Of a DNA stretch of 64,000 bases, positions 1,514 to 41,686 are shown in pieces; within the stretch, counting starts at the first letter, position 1; every line of letters starts with the position of its first letter. The translations under genes and the position numbers were made by a program. Source of the stretch: an uncultured Bacteroidota bacterium (GTDB lineage Bacteria; Bacteroidota; Bacteroidia; Chitinophagales; Chitinophagaceae); NCBI GenBank assembly GCA_903835005.1, contig CAILLK010000042.1, positions 1 through 64,000 of the forward strand. The letters run 5' to 3'. The notes under the pieces are model-generated. The model saw only the letters and a program-made list of their open reading frames with translations, was not told where the DNA came from and did not search any database.

Positions 1514-4500
1514 GTGAAAAAGTTTTTATTCCTCAATATTGTACTCTCTACTTATTTCCTTTCTAATATTGTAAGTGCCCAATGCACTACTGGTTGCACT
1601 CATGTATGCTATCAGGGAGATGTTTCTTCACCTCTTTATGTAACTACAGGGAATACCTGGACATACAGTTTCAATCTTAAAAATGTGGGAACATCCTTAG
1701 TCTGTTCTTCACCCAATGTTACATGCACTGCAACCAATTATAGGGTTGCAATTTATTCTGTTACTAAAGATGGTTCAACAACATGGACATATCCATCATC
1801 GTGCCCTTATGTAACATTAGTATCCAATCCTCCATTTACTATTGCACCTTTGATAACATCCACTGTTAGTATAGGTCTACAATTTAGTGTACCTGGAACT
1901 TATTACATCCAATTCGACATATTGTATACTGACGGTACCAGAACCTGTGTCCCAACGGGTTGGATAAGAGTATATAATACCGTTAATGTAGTTCAATGGT
2001 CTGTTAGTCCACCCACCCAAAGTGTTATTGCAGCTGGTGGACCTTATAGTGCTACTGTTTACTCTACTCCAGGTGGATTAACTTATAATCTCTCGTTGCC
2101 TGATAGCTGGATTCATTTTGTTAGTTACCCGGGTGGAGGAGCATTTAATTATACTGTCGATAATAACACATCAACTTCTTCACGAACTGGGCATATTTAT
2201 GTTAACGATGTAAGTCACGGATTTAGCGATGCTACAACATTAACGATTACACAAAATGGCGCTCCTGCAACATATGTAACTTCTAGCTTTGGTGCATCAC
2301 CTGGCTGTCAGGGTCAGTATACCTATTTTTCCGATTATTCATACGGAAGTCCGGGTCCGATTTCTTGGTCATGGAATTTTGGTGATGGATATACATCAAC
2401 CTTAGAAAATCCAAGTCATATTTATTCTACATCCGGCAGCAAGTCAGTAAGTCTTACCGTTAACAACTCTACTGGCAACAACAGTACTTCAACTCAGGTA
2501 ATAACAATTCCAAATGCAATTGTTTCTGCTTCATTTACTCAGTCACTTGGCTATTCAGGAGCAAGCAGTTCATTTACCGACATATCATCTTATTCATGTG
2601 GTAGTTATGGTACATCATGGACATGGAGTTTTGGAGACGGGTCTCCCAATTCATTAATTCACAATCCTTCCCATGTTTATACAAGTTCTGGAACTTATCC
2701 AGTTTCCCTAACCGCTTGTAATAACCTGGGTAGCTGTAACACCTCGACACATAATGTAACTATTATTCCGCCACCGGTAACTTTTTCATATACCGTTACT
2801 ACAATTCCGGCTTGGCAACGAGCAGGCGATGATTTTACTATTAGCATTAATGCCACAACGAGTGATGGTTCAAATTGGCGACTCGTGGCGCATGATCCAA
2901 CTGGTGCCAACCCTGACCATTCTTCAAGTTTGATGTTAAGTGGTGTTTTGTTTAGTTTTCCACTTAATTTCAGATACCCAACCTCTAATGTTCAATATTA
3001 TTTACAAAACACAAGTTTAATAAATTCTCCAATTTTAGTAAATTCTTTATCAACTCCATACCAAACACAAATTATTGACAGCCAATGGGTGAATAAAAAT
3101 TATGTTTATAACAACTCTCCTGGCCAAACTTTAAACATCCCGCTAAAAAATATTCCGGGAGCAACCTCAGTTAGCTATAATTTTTCCAGAGTTAGCGGTA
3201 CTTCCTCAATGAGTGATATCATTCCATCTGGTACAATGTCTTTAGTTTCTGGTAGCAATCAATACCTCATTATACCATATGCAACTTTGCATAATTTAAA
3301 TCCAGGAGTATTTACTTGTAATGTAACATATTATGGAACTTCAACTTATACAGAAACGGATGTATTTGATCTAACAAAAATAGGGGAATTAAATTCTAGT
3401 TCAACTTCAAATAAAGTAGTAATATTTGTAGCAGGTATACTCAACACAAATGAATCTGATATACAAGCTCTTCAAACTGATCTAATAGGCACGGCAGAAA
3501 CTACATCTGTTGTAAAATTTTCCCTTGCCTCTTATCTAAGCCAAAATGGTTTTGACTGTTGGTATATTGGTCAAAGTAATACTAATTATATTGTTAATAA
3601 TTCATTTGACATAGGCATTGCGCTTGAAAAAATACATCAACTTAAGCCTTTGGCAACAGAAATTGATTTTGTATGTCATAGTAAAGGTGGTCTAGAGGTC
3701 CGAGCCTTATTGGCAGACCCTTCACTAACAAAATCTCTTTCAGGTACTAGTTCATTCAATTTTAATAATTTCCAAACTTTAAATAGCACTATCGTAAAAA
3801 AAGTTCTTTTTTTAGATGTTCCTCACCGTGGCGCATCTGCAGATCTTTTTGTGAAATTTTTAGTTAAGGCATCATCACTTTTTACACAAAGTTATACTTC
3901 ATTGTCAAACACACCAGGTGTTAAAGACCTTTTGGAACACAATAGAATAGTTGATATAATAAATACTAAAAACCTACCTATTTCAATCAAATATGCAAAT
4001 GTTACCGGGTATAGCAATTATAATGGCTTAAATGACGGGGCTGTAGATTTAACTGAAAGTACTTTAGGATTTGATCCAGCTTCAATGGCTCCACTTATTT
4101 CCTTATTTGGTGGGTCGAATAATATTTATCAATTGTATCAAAATGATACAAGGTTTTTCGAGCCAATATATTATCTATTTGATGACCTTCCCTTTACCGA
4201 AATATTGCACACTAATATTCACACTAACAATATATTAAGTAATCCTGGTGGTTATGGTTTCATCGAAGGGGGGTTCCACAATTATACTCCTTTAAATTGC
4301 AATGAGGGAACAAATAATTTGTATAAAATTTATGCATTTCTAAACACTAACATTGCTGATTTTCCTCCTTTTGCTTCTTGTAACACTCATTTCATAGAAA
4401 CAATACTTGGTACTATGATTTCATCAAAATTATCTGGTGCGAAGGTCTTCTATAAAGTTAATGGAGATTCATTATTTCATTTTATTGGTAAATCAGATGA

Positions 4501-7500
4501 ATCGGGAACAATTATTTTTAGAATGTTTGGGGGTATAATGATTGGGGATTCTATAAAGTTAGAGGCTTCTGGAAAGGAAACAGTTACATTTTCTGTTGAT
4601 TCGAACATCCTTGCCACAAATAAATTCAATATTACAATGCTGTCAACTTTGAGTTCATCCTTAGAAATAAAATATCCTGAGCTACAACTTATAAATCAAA
4701 ATTATGTTACCTCAAGTAACTCAATAGATATAAAGGCCACGGGACAGAATGTATTAAGTTGCGAAATTAATTATCCATTTAATCAGGATACTAACTTTGT
4801 CCCTTTATCTTTGGTAGATAGTATTTTCACTGCAAATTTAGATACTGGTTATAACCATATCATTGTGAAGTTTATTGGCTCCGTTAATATTGACACTCTG
4901 GATAAAGAAGTATATTTTTTCCCGAGCAATTTAATTAATCAAAATTTATATAAAATTTATCTATTATGCGACTCTTTATGTTTAGGAACAAATATTTATG
5001 TTAAATCTCATTTTGTTAAACAAATAAGCTCTATAGTAGATAGTATAACTGTTTCAACAGGAAGTAATACCCTTAAATTTTCAAAAAATGGGTATGTGGA
5101 CTCACTTCTTACAGTTGATTCATCAACCACAATATCTATTTCTTCACACATTTTCCCTAACTCGTATTCATCGCTTACAGATAGTAACATTTTTGATTTT
5201 ACTGCTGGTCATTCTACACAGTATTGGAAGACTATTACTATTAGAGATACTTCATTTCACTCAATCGTATCAGTCAAACAATATGATGATAATTTTACTG
5301 GATTAGGATTATTGTCTGTAAGTAGGAAATTAGAATTTAGACTTCTTAATCCTCCTTTCTGGGCAAATTATACTTTGGGTATTTCAATTGACCAGACATC
5401 TGTTTTTCCAAAGGATAGCATTTATTTATTAAAAAAATCAAGTGATACTTTATACACAAAAACAACTTTTGATACATCCGTAAACGCTCCTACCTATGAC
5501 TCAGAAGTAATGAAACTAATAATAAATAATTTCAACTTTAATAGAGGTACAACAACTTTACAATCCTTTGCTCTCATGCAAAAACAACCACCAATTGTTT
5601 TTGCACTTGATACAATAGTTATTTATGAAAATGATAGTATACTGCTTCCAATTACAGCTTTCTTTGGTAACCCAGATTCTATAAAACATGATATTTTATT
5701 TCAATTTATTGACAGTACACCTTCTGGTTTAATTTTAACTCACAGATCCGATAGTGTATATATTCATACCGTGCCCTGTTTTTCGGGCATAACATCATTT
5801 AGTCTTAATGGGACACATGATTGGCTTACAAAGAGAAATATTGTTTATGTGAAAGTTATTCCAACTCCGCATCCAGTTATTTCATCATCAGGTGATTCTA
5901 CTTTTTGTTCAGGTAATTCTGATACACTTTATGCTTTATCTGGTATAAGCTACCAGTGGTTAAATTTTGACACACCAATTTTAGGGGCTACTGATACTAA
6001 CTTTATTGTAACCACAACAGGAAATTATTCTGCCATTATTACCAGAGGCGTTTGTCCTGACACCTCGAACATTATAAGAATTATTGTTAAAGCATTACCT
6101 GTTTTATCTCCAATTGTAAGTCAGTCAAAATGTGATAGTAATTTGAGTGATTCTGTAAATTTTATTTCATCTCTTTCAGGCACAACATGTAATTGGACAA
6201 ATGATCATTCAAGCATAGGTATACCAGATTCAGGAACTGGGAATATTGCATCTTTTAATGTAATCAATGATGGTTATTCACCTGTAATTGCTACATTTTC
6301 TGTTACACCTTTGGCAGATGGGTGTGTCGGAGTCGTGCAAAGTTTTAATATAACTGTCAACCCAATACCGAATGTTTCAGTGCCTTCAAATCAAACCATA
6401 TGTGGTGGCAATTTATCATCTTCTATATCATTAACTGGCTCGGTCAGCGGAACGATATTTATTTGGACAAACAGTAATACTAGTATTGGATTAGTAGCAA
6501 GTGATTCAAATTTTATTCCGGAATTTACAGCAACCAATGGGTCATATATTCCCATTTCGTCCTTAATACGAATTATTCCTTCAGCTAATGGCTGTACTGG
6601 TTTAGCGGATAGTTTTAATATAGTAGTCAATCCTAAACCTGTTCTAAGTAGTCCGCTAAGTCTAACACCAATTTGTGATAGCTTGGAATTTTATTATAAT
6701 CCCATAGATTCTATATCCGGAACATCATTTAGTTGGACCAGATCAATCATACTTGGAATTAGTAATCCAGTTGCCAGCGGTATAAATTCGATTAATGAGA
6801 TCCTTATTAATTCTTCTCCCTATTCTATTCCTGTTGTCTACGAATATGTTTTGTCAGCTTCGGGATGCACTGATACGCAATATGTATCAGTTACCGTAAA
6901 TCCAAAACCGAGTCTAACGAGTACACATACTCCTTCAGCCATTTGTGATAGCACTGTATTTGATTATAATCCAACAAGCGTTACGCCAGGTACTGTTTTC
7001 AGATGGAGTCGAGCAGTAGTATCAGGTATAAGCAACCCAGACGCAGATAGCGTAGGTAATCCGCATGAAGTACTCATAAATACAACCCCAAATCCGGTGG
7101 TTGTAAATTATGTAGACACCTTGATTGCCAATGGATGTTTTAACGTTCAAACTATACGTGTTACAGTTAACCCAAAACCGTTGCTTACCAGCCCGCTCAC
7201 GTTGTCGGCAATCTGTGATAGCAATTTATTCATCTATGCACCAGAGAGCCTTACAACCGGTACAAATTATTATTGGAGTCGAAACCCAATTGCCGGAATA
7301 ACTAACCCTGCAGCAACTGGATTAGATAGCATTAATGAAAGACTGATAAATAGCACTCCAAACCAAGTAGTAGTAATCTATTTTGATTCACTAGTCGCAA
7401 ATGGATGCAGTAATGTTGAAAATGTAACTGTTACCGTAAATCCAAAACCGATTCTAACGAGTACGCTTACGCCATCAGCAATATGCGACAGTACAACTTT

Positions 7501-9310
7501 TAGCTATATCCCGGCATCTGCCACACCGGGAACAACTTTTACTTGGAGCCGTGCTGGATTCGTTGGAATCAGCAACCCTGGATCAGCAGGAATTGGTAAT
7601 CCTTTGGAAACGTTGATCAATCTTACACCAAATCCTATTGTTGTGATTTACGTTGATACATTAAGAGCATATGGATGTTCGAATACTCAGAATATTTCAG
7701 TTACCGTTAATCCAAAACCAACACTCAGCAGCCCTCTTACACTACCTGCTGTTTGTGATAGTAACCTGATTCATTACATCCCTACAAGCATAACTACAGG
7801 TACTACCTTTTCTTGGGTTAGATTGACAATATCCGGTATCAGTAATCCTTTGGCATCTGGAGTAGATAGTATTAACGAAGTACTATGGAACAGTACACCC
7901 AACCCAATTGTAGTAACCTATGCAGATTCGTTGAAAGCAAATGGCTGTGGCAATGTTCAAAATGTAACAGTAACAGTCAATCCCAAACCTCTTTTAACCA
8001 GTACCTTAATTCCACCTTCAATTTGCGACAGTGCATTTTTTAATTACACTCCTACAAGTGCTACAACTGGCACGGTATTTATCTGGAGTCGCGCATCGGA
8101 AACAGGCATCTTAAATCCTTCTGCTAATGGAATAAATTCCATTCATGAATCACTGATAAATTCGACAACGGACCAAATCACTGTTACTTATATAGATACA
8201 TTGAAAGCTAACAACTGTAAAAACTTTGAGAAGATTATTGTTACGGTAAATCCGACACCACATCTGACCAGTAAGGATACGGCTTCTATATGCAGTGGCA
8301 TGCAGTTCAATTATTCCCAAGCTTGTAGTATTCCCGGCACGACCTATACATGGCTGCGACAAGGGGTGTCAGGTATAAGCCCTGCAACCAGTATTGGTTC
8401 AGGTGATATTTCTGAAACCATGACCAATGCAACATTAAGTCCAATAAACGTAATTTATATAGACACATTGACCGCTTACGGATGTTCAAATTTTTATCCG
8501 ATAAAACTCATCGTTAATCCTGTTCCAGATGCACCGCACATCACTACAGAACCGCCATCCTCACTGTGTTTTAATACGCAATATCAGAATTTCGGGACTA
8601 ACATTCCCGCACAAGCTGGAGTGGCATACACATGGACAGCCTCGAACGCAACTATTTGGGCGCAAGGCTCAGGAAAACAATACTGCTTGATTAGTTTCTT
8701 TACTCCTGGCGCCACTGCAGTAATAACACTCTCTGCAAACGTGCCTGGATTCAACTGTTTTATCAAAGACACCTTTGCTGTAACAGCAGGACTGGACGGA
8801 TCAAATGTATCAGAAACCCCGAATGTCATTTATACATCACCTGAGTTCATATGTCTTTCAGCTTTGGAAGATAGCTATCAATGGGGGTATGATGATGCTC
8901 TTACACTTGATTCAAATATTTTGCCAGGTGAGATAAACCAGAACTACCGTAACCCCAATCCTGATTTTCTCAATAAATACTACTGGGTGATCACCACGCA
9001 TAACGGCTGTATGCAGAAATCGTATGAGAATGTACCTACCGGTATATCAGGCGTTAATCCTATAAATAATGCTATGGTGGAAATATTTCCAAATCCAACT
9101 GACAACATTGTGAATGTAAGTGTAAGTAATTCACTCACAGGAAATATTGAGATAATGGCATTTGACCAGTATGGCAAGAAACTGTTGTCAGTTGTTGCTA
9201 TTAATCACAAAGCAAAGATTGAACTAGGCAGATACGCATCGGGTAGTTATCTGATTGTTTGTTTTCAGGATGGGATAAAAATAGCTTCAAAGATTGTGAT
9301 CAAAAATTAA
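1514..9310 (+). CDS. Giant secreted protein: PKD domains, alpha/beta-hydrolase (lipase-like) domain, tandem ~90-aa PKD-like repeats, T9SS C-terminal sorting domain
   Basis: GTG start with signal peptide (MKKFLFLNIVLSTYFLSNIVSAQ); PKD motifs WSWNFGDGYTSTLENPSHIY and WTWSFGDGSPNSLIHNPSHVY; hydrolase elbow-like EIDFVCHSKGGLEVRALL; C-terminus VEIFPNPTDNIVNVSV...GSYLIVCFQDG. Confidence 0.9.
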   Translation: MKKFLFLNIVLSTYFLSNIVSAQCTTGCTHVCYQGDVSSPLYVTTGNTWTYSFNLKNVGTSLVCSSPNVTCTATNYRVAIYSVTKDGSTTWTYPSSCPYVTLVSNPPFTIAPLITSTVSIGLQFSVPGTYYIQFDILYTDGTRTCVPTGWIRVYNTVNVVQWSVSPPTQSVIAAGGPYSATVYSTPGGLTYNLSLPDSWIHFVSYPGGGAFNYTVDNNTSTSSRTGHIYVNDVSHGFSDATTLTITQNGAPATYVTSSFGASPGCQGQYTYFSDYSYGSPGPISWSWNFGDGYTSTLENPSHIYSTSGSKSVSLTVNNSTGNNSTSTQVITIPNAIVSASFTQSLGYSGASSSFTDISSYSCGSYGTSWTWSFGDGSPNSLIHNPSHVYTSSGTYPVSLTACNNLGSCNTSTHNVTIIPPPVTFSYTVTTIPAWQRAGDDFTISINATTSDGSNWRLVAHDPTGANPDHSSSLMLSGVLFSFPLNFRYPTSNVQYYLQNTSLINSPILVNSLSTPYQTQIIDSQWVNKNYVYNNSPGQTLNIPLKNIPGATSVSYNFSRVSGTSSMSDIIPSGTMSLVSGSNQYLIIPYATLHNLNPGVFTCNVTYYGTSTYTETDVFDLTKIGELNSSSTSNKVVIFVAGILNTNESDIQALQTDLIGTAETTSVVKFSLASYLSQNGFDCWYIGQSNTNYIVNNSFDIGIALEKIHQLKPLATEIDFVCHSKGGLEVRALLADPSLTKSLSGTSSFNFNNFQTLNSTIVKKVLFLDVPHRGASADLFVKFLVKASSLFTQSYTSLSNTPGVKDLLEHNRIVDIINTKNLPISIKYANVTGYSNYNGLNDGAVDLTESTLGFDPASMAPLISLFGGSNNIYQLYQNDTRFFEPIYYLFDDLPFTEILHTNIHTNNILSNPGGYGFIEGGFHNYTPLNCNEGTNNLYKIYAFLNTNIADFPPFASCNTHFIETILGTMISSKLSGAKVFYKVNGDSLFHFIGKSDESGTIIFRMFGGIMIGDSIKLEASGKETVTFSVDSNILATNKFNITMLSTLSSSLEIKYPELQLINQNYVTSSNSIDIKATGQNVLSCEINYPFNQDTNFVPLSLVDSIFTANLDTGYNHIIVKFIGSVNIDTLDKEVYFFPSNLINQNLYKIYLLCDSLCLGTNIYVKSHFVKQISSIVDSITVSTGSNTLKFSKNGYVDSLLTVDSSTTISISSHIFPNSYSSLTDSNIFDFTAGHSTQYWKTITIRDTSFHSIVSVKQYDDNFTGLGLLSVSRKLEFRLLNPPFWANYTLGISIDQTSVFPKDSIYLLKKSSDTLYTKTTFDTSVNAPTYDSEVMKLIINNFNFNRGTTTLQSFALMQKQPPIVFALDTIVIYENDSILLPITAFFGNPDSIKHDILFQFIDSTPSGLILTHRSDSVYIHTVPCFSGITSFSLNGTHDWLTKRNIVYVKVIPTPHPVISSSGDSTFCSGNSDTLYALSGISYQWLNFDTPILGATDTNFIVTTTGNYSAIITRGVCPDTSNIIRIIVKALPVLSPIVSQSKCDSNLSDSVNFISSLSGTTCNWTNDHSSIGIPDSGTGNIASFNVINDGYSPVIATFSVTPLADGCVGVVQSFNITVNPIPNVSVPSNQTICGGNLSSSISLTGSVSGTIFIWTNSNTSIGLVASDSNFIPEFTATNGSYIPISSLIRIIPSANGCTGLADSFNIVVNPKPVLSSPLSLTPICDSLEFYYNPIDSISGTSFSWTRSIILGISNPVASGINSINEILINSSPYSIPVVYEYVLSASGCTDTQYVSVTVNPKPSLTSTHTPSAICDSTVFDYNPTSVTPGTVFRWSRAVVSGISNPDADSVGNPHEVLINTTPNPVVVNYVDTLIANGCFNVQTIRVTVNPKPLLTSPLTLSAICDSNLFIYAPESLTTGTNYYWSRNPIAGITNPAATGLDSINERLINSTPNQVVVIYFDSLVANGCSNVENVTVTVNPKPILTSTLTPSAICDSTTFSYIPASATPGTTFTWSRAGFVGISNPGSAGIGNPLETLINLTPNPIVVIYVDTLRAYGCSNTQNISVTVNPKPTLSSPLTLPAVCDSNLIHYIPTSITTGTTFSWVRLTISGISNPLASGVDSINEVLWNSTPNPIVVTYADSLKANGCGNVQNVTVTVNPKPLLTSTLIPPSICDSAFFNYTPTSATTGTVFIWSRASETGILNPSANGINSIHESLINSTTDQITVTYIDTLKANNCKNFEKIIVTVNPTPHLTSKDTASICSGMQFNYSQACSIPGTTYTWLRQGVSGISPATSIGSGDISETMTNATLSPINVIYIDTLTAYGCSNFYPIKLIVNPVPDAPHITTEPPSSLCFNTQYQNFGTNIPAQAGVAYTWTASNATIWAQGSGKQYCLISFFTPGATAVITLSANVPGFNCFIKDTFAVTAGLDGSNVSETPNVIYTSPEFICLSALEDSYQWGYDDALTLDSNILPGEINQNYRNPNPDFLNKYYWVITTHNGCMQKSYENVPTGISGVNPINNAMVEIFPNPTDNIVNVSVSNSLTGNIEIMAFDQYGKKLLSVVAINHKAKIELGRYASGSYLIVCFQDGIKIASKIVIKN
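6629..8518 (+). repeat. Tandem in-gene repeats, period 270 nt (90 aa), about 7 units, PKD-like
   Basis: The NPKP/NPxP linker codons (aat/aac-cc-) start at 6629, 6899, 7169, 7439, 7709, 7979, 8249 and 8516: six intervals of exactly 270 and one of 267. Units carry AICDS...GTTFTWSR...GISNP...INSTPNPIVVTYVDTLxANGC.. Confidence 0.9.
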
Positions 9311-9333: not shown

Positions 9334-11043
9334 TTGAAAAAGGAAATCTATGCTTTGATTTTAGTTCTCTTTACCCAAACAGTATTTGGGCAGGACTATT
9401 GGATGTATATCCCTAAAGATAATTTTAATAATCAAAAATGGAGTTTTGATCTTGGCTACCTTGGTTCAGTAAATTTTTTTCAAAAACTAACCTATAACAA
9501 CCCAACCGGAAATTACGACAATCCTATAAATGCGAATATCAAAAGTCCTAAGTTCAATAGTGGTAGTATGACAGGTATTGAAGTCACCGGCGGATATTTT
9601 TTTGGTCTTAAAAAAATGTTTGGCGTAGGTTCTGGTGTTATATTTCTTCAACAAACAGGAAAAATTACTCAGGATAGCATTCACATAGAGTATCAATCTC
9701 AGGATTTTCAAGGAAAAACTTTCAGACAGATTATTTCTTCAAATGGCCAAATACAAGAATCTATAAACCTATCTAACCTAAATATCCCTCTATTATTTAA
9801 ATTTCGAAAAAAGATCTCTGGTTTTATTGGTTTTTCTGCCGATCTTGGTTTTTTATTTAACCCAAATCTCAAATCATTTTCAGTAAAGAATAACTATTCC
9901 ACTACCGCATCGTTTGATTACGAAGCTATATACCAATACCTGCGTGATGCCAATGGAAACTATATAGCTGTTTATGATAATTCGCCAATTCCTTCCTCAA
10001 GCAATGATTGGTTTATTACAAGAAAACAGTACCAGGACAGTAACCCCATTAATATGAATAGTCAGTTCGATAGTTTATATAAACAGGGATATTATGTCGG
10101 GCTTAAAATGAAGCCTAAAAACCCTAGCGGGAATAATCCTTCCTCTAAATTCTCAGGTGGAATAATATTCAGGCCACAGGTAAATCTGTACCTACATCGT
10201 TCAATTTCTGTTAATCTAGGCGGCTACTATTTATACCAACAATCCAATAATTCAGCTAACAACAATTATCGCATTACAGATAAAGTTGGAAGTTACAGTT
10301 CAATGCTGAATGGTGTTACTAAAACTACAACTCAATCATATGGTTTTAACCTTGGGATAAGTATTCTTTTTGGGAGAAGGGATAGTGATGGGGATGGTAT
10401 TCCAGACCGTAAAGACTGGTGCCCCTATGCACCGGGGCCTCGCATATTTAATGGATGTCCAGATTCAGACGGAGATGGTATTCCTGACATCAATGATTCT
10501 TGCCCACATCAGGCTGGGCCGGTTGCTACTTTTGGTTGTCCTGACACTGATGGAGATGGAGTGGCTGACAAATGGGATAAGTGTCCGGGGACTCCGTTAA
10601 AAGTAAAAGTTGATAAAAATGGTTGCCCCTTAGATAGGGATAAAGATGGCGTTGCTGATTACCTTGACTATTGCCCAGATATTAAAGGAAATAAAGAAAA
10701 TTTTGGTTGTCCAGACACCTTATTTCAAAAGGCAATAGAGTTTCAGAATGCCAAAGCAATAATATCAAAATCATCGGATTCATTGATGAAAGTTGCGTTA
10801 ACAATTCTGCAAAAAAATCCAAGAGTAGATATTTCAATTATTGGGGTCATTGATAAACCAGATAAATCACAAAAAATAAAGGAACTTTCTGATGAACGTG
10901 CGAAAACAATAATAAAGTTTTTTACCGATAACGGTGTTATGAAATCCAGACTTCTGAATAATAGATTATGGAATAATGCTAAAGATAAAACTCAATCAGA
11001 AAATCAAAGGGCAACAATCAAATTGAAGTACAGAATGAAGTAA
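9334..11043 (+). CDS. Outer-membrane protein with beta-barrel N-terminus, thrombospondin type 3 calcium-binding repeats and OmpA-like C-terminus
   Basis: DSDGDGIPDRKDWCPYAPGPRIFNGCPDSDGDGIPD... repeats followed by OmpA-like IIGVIDKPDKSQKIKELSDERAKTIIKFF. TTG at 9334 gives signal peptide MKKEIYALILVLFTQTVFGQ; the listed 9259 start would overlap the upstream gene. Confidence 0.8.
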   Translation: MKKEIYALILVLFTQTVFGQDYWMYIPKDNFNNQKWSFDLGYLGSVNFFQKLTYNNPTGNYDNPINANIKSPKFNSGSMTGIEVTGGYFFGLKKMFGVGSGVIFLQQTGKITQDSIHIEYQSQDFQGKTFRQIISSNGQIQESINLSNLNIPLLFKFRKKISGFIGFSADLGFLFNPNLKSFSVKNNYSTTASFDYEAIYQYLRDANGNYIAVYDNSPIPSSSNDWFITRKQYQDSNPINMNSQFDSLYKQGYYVGLKMKPKNPSGNNPSSKFSGGIIFRPQVNLYLHRSISVNLGGYYLYQQSNNSANNNYRITDKVGSYSSMLNGVTKTTTQSYGFNLGISILFGRRDSDGDGIPDRKDWCPYAPGPRIFNGCPDSDGDGIPDINDSCPHQAGPVATFGCPDTDGDGVADKWDKCPGTPLKVKVDKNGCPLDRDKDGVADYLDYCPDIKGNKENFGCPDTLFQKAIEFQNAKAIISKSSDSLMKVALTILQKNPRVDISIIGVIDKPDKSQKIKELSDERAKTIIKFFTDNGVMKSRLLNNRLWNNAKDKTQSENQRATIKLKYRMK

Positions 11044-11120
11044 GATGTTTTTACTGATCCAATTTCATACATATGTGCTAATTGAAAACAAATTATAGTT
11101 AAAAACTAAATATAAGTTAG

Positions 11121-40033: not shown

Positions 40034-40113
40034 AATCTTACCCGCAGCTGCGGGCTCATTTTAACCGTTAATAAATTACCCTCACCCTTCCGGGAACGGG
40101 TATTGATTTTGCA

Positions 40114-40184
40114 CGGGCACGTGGATTCGAACCACGATCGAAGGTTTTGGAGACCTCTATTCTGCCGTTGAACTATGCCCGTAT
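40114..40184 (-). tRNA. tRNA-Trp (CCA anticodon)
   Basis: Minus strand acgggcatagttcaacggcagaatagaggtctccaaaaccttcgatcgtggttcgaatccacgtgcccgt; acceptor, T arm and CTCCAAA anticodon loop visible; upstream of secE-nusG. Confidence 0.95.
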
Positions 40185-40484: not shown

Positions 40485-40515
40485 AAAAAAGCCTCCATTA
40501 CAGAAGGCTTTCTCT
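40485..40515 (-). terminator. Putative terminator hairpin
   Basis: Minus strand aaagccttctgtaatggaggcttttttg; overlaps the end of the truncated Avd-like ORF. Confidence 0.5.
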
Positions 40516-40815
40516 TAAATGTGACCCGGATTGACATTTTATCGAACCAGTTAAAAGAATTTTGTTATGCCGTATATCCCTTAAAGGAATGGTTTGGAAT
40601 GTAATAGTAACAAAAGGGAAATTAAGGATGATAATGGAAAGGAGAACCTTCTTAAAAATGGTTCGATGTTGAAAAAAAATTTTCGCGTTGTAAGTGATAG
40701 ACTCCTGCCCCAATGTATATTTATATTGCCTGCTAAAATCTCTGGTACATTCAAATATTTTAAGGATTAACTGATACGTGTTTTTATACACAGGCAGTTC
40801 ATAATACAACGCCAT
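40498..40815 (-). pseudogene. Truncated or frameshifted DGR accessory variability determinant (Avd-like four-helix-bundle) gene
   Basis: N-terminus MALYYELPVYKNTYQLILKIFECTRDFSRQYKYTLGQES matches bacterial Avd-like proteins as I know the family; from about residue 41 on it does not (ITYNAKIFFQHRTIFKKVLLSI...). Confidence 0.62.
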
Positions 40816-40829
40816 TTTTTTGAAATTTT

Positions 40830-40844
40830 TACCGCTTCGCGGTA
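40830..40844. repeat. GC-rich hairpin just downstream of the variable region
   Basis: taccgc-ttc-gcggta, 6-bp stem, 24 nt past the target gene's stop. Confidence 0.7.
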
Positions 40845-40867
40845 TTTCTTTTTAAATAGTTAAATTA

Positions 40868-41365
40868 TTAAAAAGCCCGCAAAGCACGCACGTAGCTTGC
40901 GAATTCCTTGTCGAAGGGGGTCTGGGTGCCACCGGCGAAGTCCTCGAACCACACGAACATGAAGTCGGCCTCACTCGAACTCCAATAGAAGCCACTGGCA
41001 AAACCACCTATTTCGGCTTGATTAATGTATAATTTATTTAATTCATCTTTGCTGGGCAAATACCAATCGGTGTTGCCACCACCTGTGTAGCTCCTTGCCA
41101 CTATGGCAGCATAGCTGCCTGCCCCCTGATTGGCTATAATAGCCATCGTATTTGAAAGTCCAGTTCCAATAGCAGTACCTGTAGCATAGGTATTAGTGTA
41201 GCTCCCGTTATACCATTGCACACCTGTACTCTGGTCGCCTGAGGCAGCTATCAGTCCATGTTGTACTGCCGGATCATATCCCGGATCACCGGATTGTAGC
41301 AGGTACGCAATTTTTCCACCGCCATAACTTTGACCTATGGTTAGTGTTGTTGTGGTTTGCTTCAT
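40868..41365 (-). CDS. DUF1566 / C-type-lectin-fold protein; likely DGR target (variable protein)
   Basis: IGQSYGGGKIAYLLQSGDPGYDPAVQHGLIAASGDQSTGVQWYNGSY...DWYLPSKDELNKLYINQAEIGGFASGFYWSSSEADFMFVWFEDFAGGTQTPFDKEFASYVRALRAF*. Confidence 0.85.
   Translation of the reverse strand: MKQTTTTLTIGQSYGGGKIAYLLQSGDPGYDPAVQHGLIAASGDQSTGVQWYNGSYTNTYATGTAIGTGLSNTMAIIANQGAGSYAAIVARSYTGGGNTDWYLPSKDELNKLYINQAEIGGFASGFYWSSSEADFMFVWFEDFAGGTQTPFDKEFASYVRALRAF
40871..40990 (-). other. Candidate DGR variable region (VR)
   Basis: After tat tgg agt tcg agt gag: gcc gac ttc atg ttc gtg tgg ttc gag gac ttc gcc ggt ggc acc cag acc ccc ttc gac aag gaa ttc gca agc tac; 17 of 26 codons end in C, as expected for AAC template codons mutated at adenines. 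Confidence 0.68.
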
Positions 41366-41570
41366 AAAAACTATTTTGGTTTTAAAAATACTACTGGGGT
41401 TTCAAAAATACTATTTTCTAATAAAAAATACCTCCACATATAAATAACATTAATTATTCCGCCATGCAGTTTATCCTCCGGATATTAGCCATATAAATAC
41501 ATGGAATATTACAACAGAGAAAAAGTCATCAACGGTGAATAGCAAGACAATACTCCCACGCGCAGGCATA

Positions 41571-41608
41571 AAAAAGCCCGTAAGTGCTTTAAAGTGCTCT
41601 TACGGGCC
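41571..41608 (-). terminator. Terminator downstream of tRNA-Arg
   Basis: gcccgtaag...cttacgggc inverted repeat followed on the minus strand by a T run. Confidence 0.7.
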
Positions 41609-41612
41609 GAAG

Positions 41613-41686
41613 TGACCCGGATTGGATTCGAACCAATGACCCCCAGCTTAGAAGGCTGGTGCTCTATCCAGCTGAGCTACCGGGCC
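41613..41686 (-). tRNA. tRNA-Arg (TCT anticodon)
   Basis: Minus strand ggcccggtagctcagctggatagagcaccagccttctaagctgggggtcattggttcgaatccaatccgggtca; full cloverleaf features. Confidence 0.95.

What the first reader, a model, noticed from the sequence alone, without database searches (positions are those of the whole stretch)
40498..41365. Diversity-generating retroelement remnant or orphan target: DUF1566 variable protein plus truncated Avd-like gene, no RT in view
Seen: the C-terminus FYWSSSEADFMFVWFEDFAGGTQTPFDKEFASYVRALRAF has the WSSSE...YVRAxRAF frame of C-type-lectin-like DGR targets. The putative variable codons are mostly NNC (17 of 26), unlike the mixed third positions in the rest of the gene. 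Downstream on the same strand, MALYYELPVYKNTYQLILKIFECTRDFSRQYKYTLG looks like a DGR Avd-like protein that loses similarity after about 40 residues. No reverse transcriptase or AAC-rich template repeat appears here. Either the cassette is decayed and carries a frozen diversified allele, or it is a remote target served by an RT/TR elsewhere in the genome.
Basis: partly seen in the sequence, partly recalled or inferred. Interest (0 to 1): 0.88.

Follow-up and report, generated by a model that had tools for sequence, protein, structure and literature searches.

The report
Fossil of a diversity-generating retroelement
Beside a tRNA gene lie the broken remains of a bacterial protein-diversifying machine: one already-scrambled binding-protein gene and a stub of its helper gene, with the enzyme and template that did the scrambling apparently gone, a kind of relic already seen in other microbes.

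Summary
40868-41365(-) encodes a C-type-lectin-like (Lcl_C/DUF1566) protein, and 40704-40815(-) is the first 37 codons of a DGR avd gene. Intact target-avd-TR-RT cassettes occur in the same genus. Against a congener's template, the window's variable repeat (VR) differs at 29/48 template adenines but only 9/84 other bases (Fisher p=2e-9); dN/dS is 3.1 in the VR and 0.21 outside it. The VR therefore carries adenine-directed diversification.

The system looks dead in this assembly. There is no template repeat and no DGR reverse transcriptase in the 5.9-Mb genome; avd stops at codon 37; and, newly seen, the target has lost about 420 in-frame bases encoding signal peptide and stalk. The post-VR hairpin is kept. 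The fragment sits between tRNA-Arg(TCT), an integration hot spot in the genus, and a 13-bp duplicate of that tRNA's 3' end.

At least five other congeners without a detected RT keep VRs with the same signature. DGR fossils were already described in Treponema denticola, nanoarchaea and cyanobacteria, so this is a new member of a known kind. Open: whether the RT is missing from the organism or only from the assembly, and what the tRNA-like boundary means.

The parts
41612..41686 (-). tRNA-Arg (anticodon TCT), upstream boundary of the fragment; integration hot spot in the genus
   Evidence: ARAGORN, Rfam; tyrosine-integrase-like genes or a large serine recombinase next to the orthologous tRNA in congeners
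41576..41607 (-). inverted repeat plus T-run right after the tRNA, terminator-like
   Evidence: I9; same terminator in G028:C30
41385..41546 (-). leader/upstream region homologous to that of intact DGR target genes
   Evidence: 72-76% identity to the region upstream of targets in L076, L077, L078 and L080
41361..41431 (.). three degenerate 20-nt direct repeats running into the start codon
   Evidence: D1
40868..41365 (-). DGR target gene (Lcl_C/DUF1566, C-type-lectin-like), N-terminally deleted, stop codon included
   Evidence: Pfam PF07603 E 6e-9; 74-75% protein identity to targets in G020 and G025
41352..41356 (-). approximate junction of the ~420-nt in-frame deletion (MKQT kept; signal peptide and stalk gone)
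   Evidence: alignment with L076 and L080, whose targets are 299-303 aa
40865..41007 (-). stretch that aligns with congeneric TRs (VR; diversified core about 40894-40972)
   Evidence: 72% to L075/L077 TR, mismatches concentrated at template A
40830..40844 (-). hairpin TACCGC-GAA-GCGGTA, 23 nt after the stop codon
   Evidence: the same or a similar hairpin at the same place in L075, L076, L077, L084, L086
40704..40815 (-). 5' fragment of avd, codons 1-37
   Evidence: PHROG 3206 E 6.6e-5; homology ends at 40703/40704
40534..40703 (-). sequence of unknown origin fused to the avd stub (rest of the 105-aa ORF)
   Evidence: no extended match in 35 congeneric genomes
40521..40533 (-). 13-bp exact duplicate of the tRNA-Arg 3' end, att-like distal boundary
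   Evidence: 0 expected in shuffles

Best explanation
The locus is a fossil of a diversity-generating retroelement. An ancestor carried target-avd-TR-RT, as congeners still do. The RT, with Avd, copied the TR with errors at adenines, and the cDNA replaced the VR of the target, giving the present scrambled allele (inferred from the VR pattern). Later two deletions broke it: one from avd codon 37 onward, removing the TR and RT, and one inside the target, removing the signal peptide and stalk but keeping the start codon and frame (both shown by comparison). What remains is an allele that cannot be diversified further with the parts in this assembly, and that is probably no longer exported. The recipient features (VR 3' end and hairpin) are still there.
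For: Intact cassettes in the same genus: L075, L076 and L081 carry TR plus RT with the DGR motif GLPIGN(L)SSQ. In L075 the VR differs from the TR at 22 sites, 20 at A; in L077 at 24 sites, 23 at A. Window VR against L077 TR: 29/48 A versus 9/84 non-A mismatches, p 2.3e-9, while the genome's own C102 paralogue gives 22/48 versus 30/87, p 0.13. VR dN/dS about 3.1 with dS 0.12-0.16; rest of gene 0.20-0.21 with dS 0.47-0.50 against the closest two homologues. No TR in the genome. No DGR RT in the genome: none with a congeneric DGR RT as query, and the RVT_1 hits read as group II intron and other non-DGR types by inspection, while the same model finds the congeneric DGR RT at 80.6 bits. Deletions seen directly.
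Against: The genome is a draft of 163 contigs at 99.35% completeness, and its relatives are metagenome-assembled genomes, so an RT/TR in a repeat, phage or plasmid could have been missed. The TR used for comparison comes from another species. The non-VR part of the target and the avd stub show low dN/dS, which reflects mostly the time before decay but could hide continued use of the target domain. Loss of export is inferred from the missing hydrophobic N-terminus, not tested.
Confidence: 0.88

Rival explanations
1. Live remote target: an RT/TR elsewhere in the organism, missed by the assembly, still diversifies this VR in trans.
For: Hairpin and VR 3' end are intact; remote targets are known (PMC4891356, PMC7517822); the draft assembly is fragmented.
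Against: No TR or DGR RT found by several searches at 99% estimated completeness; the protein has lost its leader; 9-10 non-adenine differences from the congeneric TR suggest an older copy, although a diverged TR would give the same.
Confidence: 0.08
2. Mobile target cassette: leader-target-avd stub moves as a unit and was inserted at the tRNA-Arg 3' end by site-specific recombination, after being diversified elsewhere.
For: 13-bp tRNA duplicate at the far end; the sister genome G020 has a short, empty site at the same tRNA and intact cassettes elsewhere; the tRNA is an integration hot spot; G010 has two target-plus-avd-stub units and two further avd stubs, all fused to the same ~100-nt repeat with a tRNA-like end.
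Against: No recombinase in the fragment; the avd breakpoint differs between the window (codon 37) and G010 (about codon 50); the repeat also lies behind unrelated genes, so it is not a dedicated cassette end; a deletion inside a larger integrated element explains the window equally well.
Confidence: 0.12
3. Ordinary fast-evolving DUF1566 paralogue that never was a DGR target.
For: DUF1566 proteins are numerous in these genomes and many are not diversified by this TR.
Against: Adenine-specific mismatch pattern, neighbouring avd stub, conserved hairpin, and 82% DNA identity to a target beside a TR and RT.
Confidence: 0.01

Closest known systems
Treponema denticola target genes in strains lacking RT and TR (PMC4891356)
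   Same: adenine-biased VRs left in genomes without RT or TR, interpreted as remnants of lost DGR cores
   Different: other phylum; here an avd stub and a leader deletion also mark the decay
Nanoarchaeal DGR fragments (PMC4372165)
   Same: diversified VRs at sites without an RT, described as possible fossils or remote targets
   Different: those genomes keep other DGRs, and their targets are not C-type-lectin-like by sequence
Intact DGR cassettes of the same genus, e.g. G020:C163 (L075)
   Same: leader, target domain, hairpin and avd start at 82% DNA identity, same gene order
   Different: they keep full avd, TR and RT and a ~297-aa exported-looking target
Remote variable proteins of cyanobacteria (PMC7517822)
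   Same: C-type-lectin variable proteins away from any RT; one paralogue with remnant TR-VR homology and no RT nearby
   Different: the paper's remote targets were assigned to a DGR in the same genome; none found here

Membership tests
Diversity-generating retroelement (active) | DGR-type reverse transcriptase | tested here: not met
   none with a congeneric DGR RT as query; the RVT_1 hits in the genome are group II intron or other types by inspection
Diversity-generating retroelement (active) | template repeat near-identical to the VR except at adenines | tested here: not met
   blastn, degenerate adenine-tolerant pattern and congeneric TR as query find only the VR itself
DGR target (variable protein), present or former | VR whose differences from a TR fall at template adenines | tested here: met
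   29/48 versus 9/84, p 2e-9, against a congeneric TR, not its own
DGR target (variable protein), present or former | VR at the 3' end of a C-type-lectin-like or Ig-like gene | tested here: met
   Lcl_C match to residue 163 of 165; C-type-lectin fold itself not modelled here
DGR target (variable protein), present or former | hairpin/cruciform downstream of the VR | tested here: met
   6-bp stem, 3-nt loop, kept in congeners; shorter than the 7-10 bp stems with 4-nt loops of PMC3240598
Avd | full-length four-helix accessory protein (~110 aa) | tested here: not met
   only codons 1-37 are homologous; below the Pfam and NCBIfam cut-offs
DGR target (variable protein), present or former | ongoing variation among close strains | not testable with these tools
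   no second strain or reads of this organism available
tRNA-integrated mobile element | duplicated tRNA 3' end at the far boundary and a recombinase gene | tested here: inconclusive
   13-bp duplicate present; no recombinase within the fragment

The most novel reading that the evidence does not exclude
In this genus, pre-diversified DGR target genes travel as small units (leader, target, hairpin, avd 5' end) that recombine at tRNA-3'-end-like sites and seed genomes without an RT with ready-made binding-protein alleles.
Probability: 0.08. Interest if true: 0.65.

Novelty: new member of a known kind. Interest (0 to 1): 0.3.

Why it matters
It gives a dated-looking, part-by-part picture of how a DGR decays: RT and TR go, avd is cut, the target loses its export part, while the diversified domain and its recipient hairpin persist. 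In 35 genomes of the genus, clearly diversified VRs occur in at least six genomes in which no DGR RT was found (this one, G008, G010, G013, G025, G031), so surveys that look for an RT next to a target would miss much of the past activity, a limit that PMC8144416 states for its own survey.

Tried and rejected
TR search by blastn with the VR, by an adenine-tolerant degenerate pattern with 3 mismatches, and with the congeneric TR: only the VR itself. The strongest other blast hit (C102) is a paralogous DUF1566 gene without adenine bias. The genome's bAvd-profile hit at C156 is below the cut-off and lies next to rpoC, so I did not count it as Avd. Phage records gave only ~30% identical proteins, and viral contigs one 42% RT, so no phage origin could be shown. 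The idea that the ~100-nt repeat behind G010's avd stubs is a dedicated cassette end was dropped, because it also follows unrelated genes; Rfam does not know it. Synonymous divergence of the flanking gene (1.08), secE (0.24) and the target (0.50) is too uneven to decide between vertical descent and transfer.

Full report
What is there. On the minus strand, between tRNA-Arg(TCT) at 41612-41686 and tRNA-Trp at 40111-40182, lie a 165-aa ORF (40868-41365) and a 105-aa ORF (40498-40815). The first matches Lcl_C/PF07603 above its cut-off and PHROG 4245 (E 9e-23). The second matches the DGR accessory protein Avd over its first 38 residues only (PHROG 3206, E 6.6e-5; weak in Pfam and NCBIfam).

Intact relatives. 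Congeneric genomes carry complete cassettes in the order target, avd, TR, RT: G020:C163 (L075), G020:C106 (L076), and on a contig end G028:C57 (L081). The L075 RT matches RVT_1 at 80.6 bits and carries GLPIGNLSSQ, the DGR-type motif as I know it. In L075 the VR differs from its TR at 22 positions, 20 of them template A; in L077 at 24, 23 of them A. The window is 82% identical to L075 over 659 nt covering target, hairpin and avd start, and the match ends at 40703. These relatives are uncultured Bacteroidetes MAGs, some with lake-sample-like names; no named cultured relative was found.

Was the window's VR diversified by a DGR? Aligned by codons with the L077 TR, it differs at 29 of 48 template adenines but at 9 of 84 other bases (Fisher p 2.3e-9). 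The genome's own paralogue at C102 shows no such bias (22/48 versus 30/87, p 0.13). Against L075 and L080 the VR has dN/dS about 3.1 with dS 0.14-0.16, while the rest of the domain has 0.20-0.21 with dS 0.47-0.50. Low synonymous and high nonsynonymous divergence in the VR is what repeated overwriting from a TR gives. The TR is from another species, so the nine non-adenine differences may be TR divergence or later mutation.

Is it still served? In this genome I found no TR with the VR as blastn query, with a pattern that allows A at every position, or with the congeneric TR. RVT_1 finds five stretches. By inspection of the sequences these are two group II intron RTs, one of them broken, and two others without the DGR motif. 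A congeneric DGR RT used as query finds nothing. The assembly is 99.35% complete by estimate but in 163 contigs, so absence is strong but not proof.

Decay. Congeneric targets that align well are about 280-303 aa and start with a hydrophobic, signal-peptide-like stretch (MKQTIYLLALTLVSVFITNYAIGQ in L076). The window keeps the upstream region, the start codon and MKQT, then jumps about 420 nt in frame to TTLTIGQSYGG. The signal peptide and stalk are gone; that the protein is therefore not exported is inference. Avd ends after codon 37 and runs into 170 nt without any extended match in 35 congeneric genomes. The hairpin TACCGC-GAA-GCGGTA stands 23 nt after the stop codon and is kept at the same place in intact cassettes; its DNA fold is modestly better than shuffles over the 69-nt stretch (z -2). 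Such a hairpin is required for retrohoming in phage BPP-1, where stems are 7-10 bp with 4-nt loops (PMC3240598); this one is shorter.

Setting. The 3' end of tRNA-Arg (GTGACCCGGATTG) recurs exactly at 40521-40533, against none expected. In the sister genome G020 the same tRNA and the sequence next to tRNA-Trp are only about 180 nt apart, so that site is empty, while its cassettes lie elsewhere. In other congeners the tRNA is followed by integrase-like genes or a large serine recombinase. The fragment thus lies in an integration hot spot, and is best read as what deletions left of an integrated element; direct insertion of the small fragment is the rival.

Wider pattern. VRs with the same adenine bias (p below 1e-6) occur in G008, G010, G013, G025 and G031, none of which has a detected RT of this type. 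G019 keeps target, avd and a TR-like stretch but no RT was found, and G033's RT is cut at residue 228. Loss of the RT therefore looks recurrent, with the caveat that all of these are drafts.

Known or new. Remnant targets without RT and TR are reported for Treponema denticola (PMC4891356), RT-less diversified VRs for nanoarchaea, there called possible fossils (PMC4372165), and a cyanobacterial paralogue with remnant TR-VR homology (PMC7517822). This case is a new member of that kind, with unusually clear steps of decay. I score interest 0.3.

Noticed in passing
L195 (G010:C16) 3478-5018 and 10967-11066; L196 (G010:C6) 3537-3636: Truncated avd copies, all cut near codon 50 and fused to the same ~100-nt sequence, which ends in a tRNA-3'-end-like motif (GGTTCGAGAAAAGTCC...GGGTTCAC) and is followed by terminator-like hairpins; two of the copies still follow a target gene.
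   Followed up: partly
L197, L201, L204, L205, L207, L156 and others: The same ~60-nt repeat sits between ordinary genes and their terminators in 12 of 35 congeneric genomes; its reverse strand reads like a conserved peptide (NP.GLFSNLFIEDLKKLV). Not in Rfam; nature unknown.
   Followed up: partly
L194 (G034:C128) 6188-7834: A large serine recombinase gene whose 3' end runs antisense through tRNA-Arg(TCT), with a repeat end 6.6 kb away in the same orientation as the tRNA: probably an integrated element.
   Followed up: partly
window 41361-41431: Three degenerate 20-nt tandem repeats running into the start codon of the target; absent as such from the aligned congeners.
   Followed up: no
L079 (G019:C28) 1-1121: Target, full avd and a TR-like stretch (85%) without a detected RT: another partly lost cassette.
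   Followed up: partly
L077 (G033:C467) 2562-3404: DGR RT cut after residue 228 and running into a convergent gene, beside an intact TR and avd.
   Followed up: partly
L002 (G000:C102) 1130-1705: Second Lcl_C-type gene of the same genome, without adenine bias against the congeneric TR.
   Followed up: yes
L012/L013 (G000:C82): Group II intron RT apparently split into two frames; an intact one at C74 (L009).
   Followed up: no
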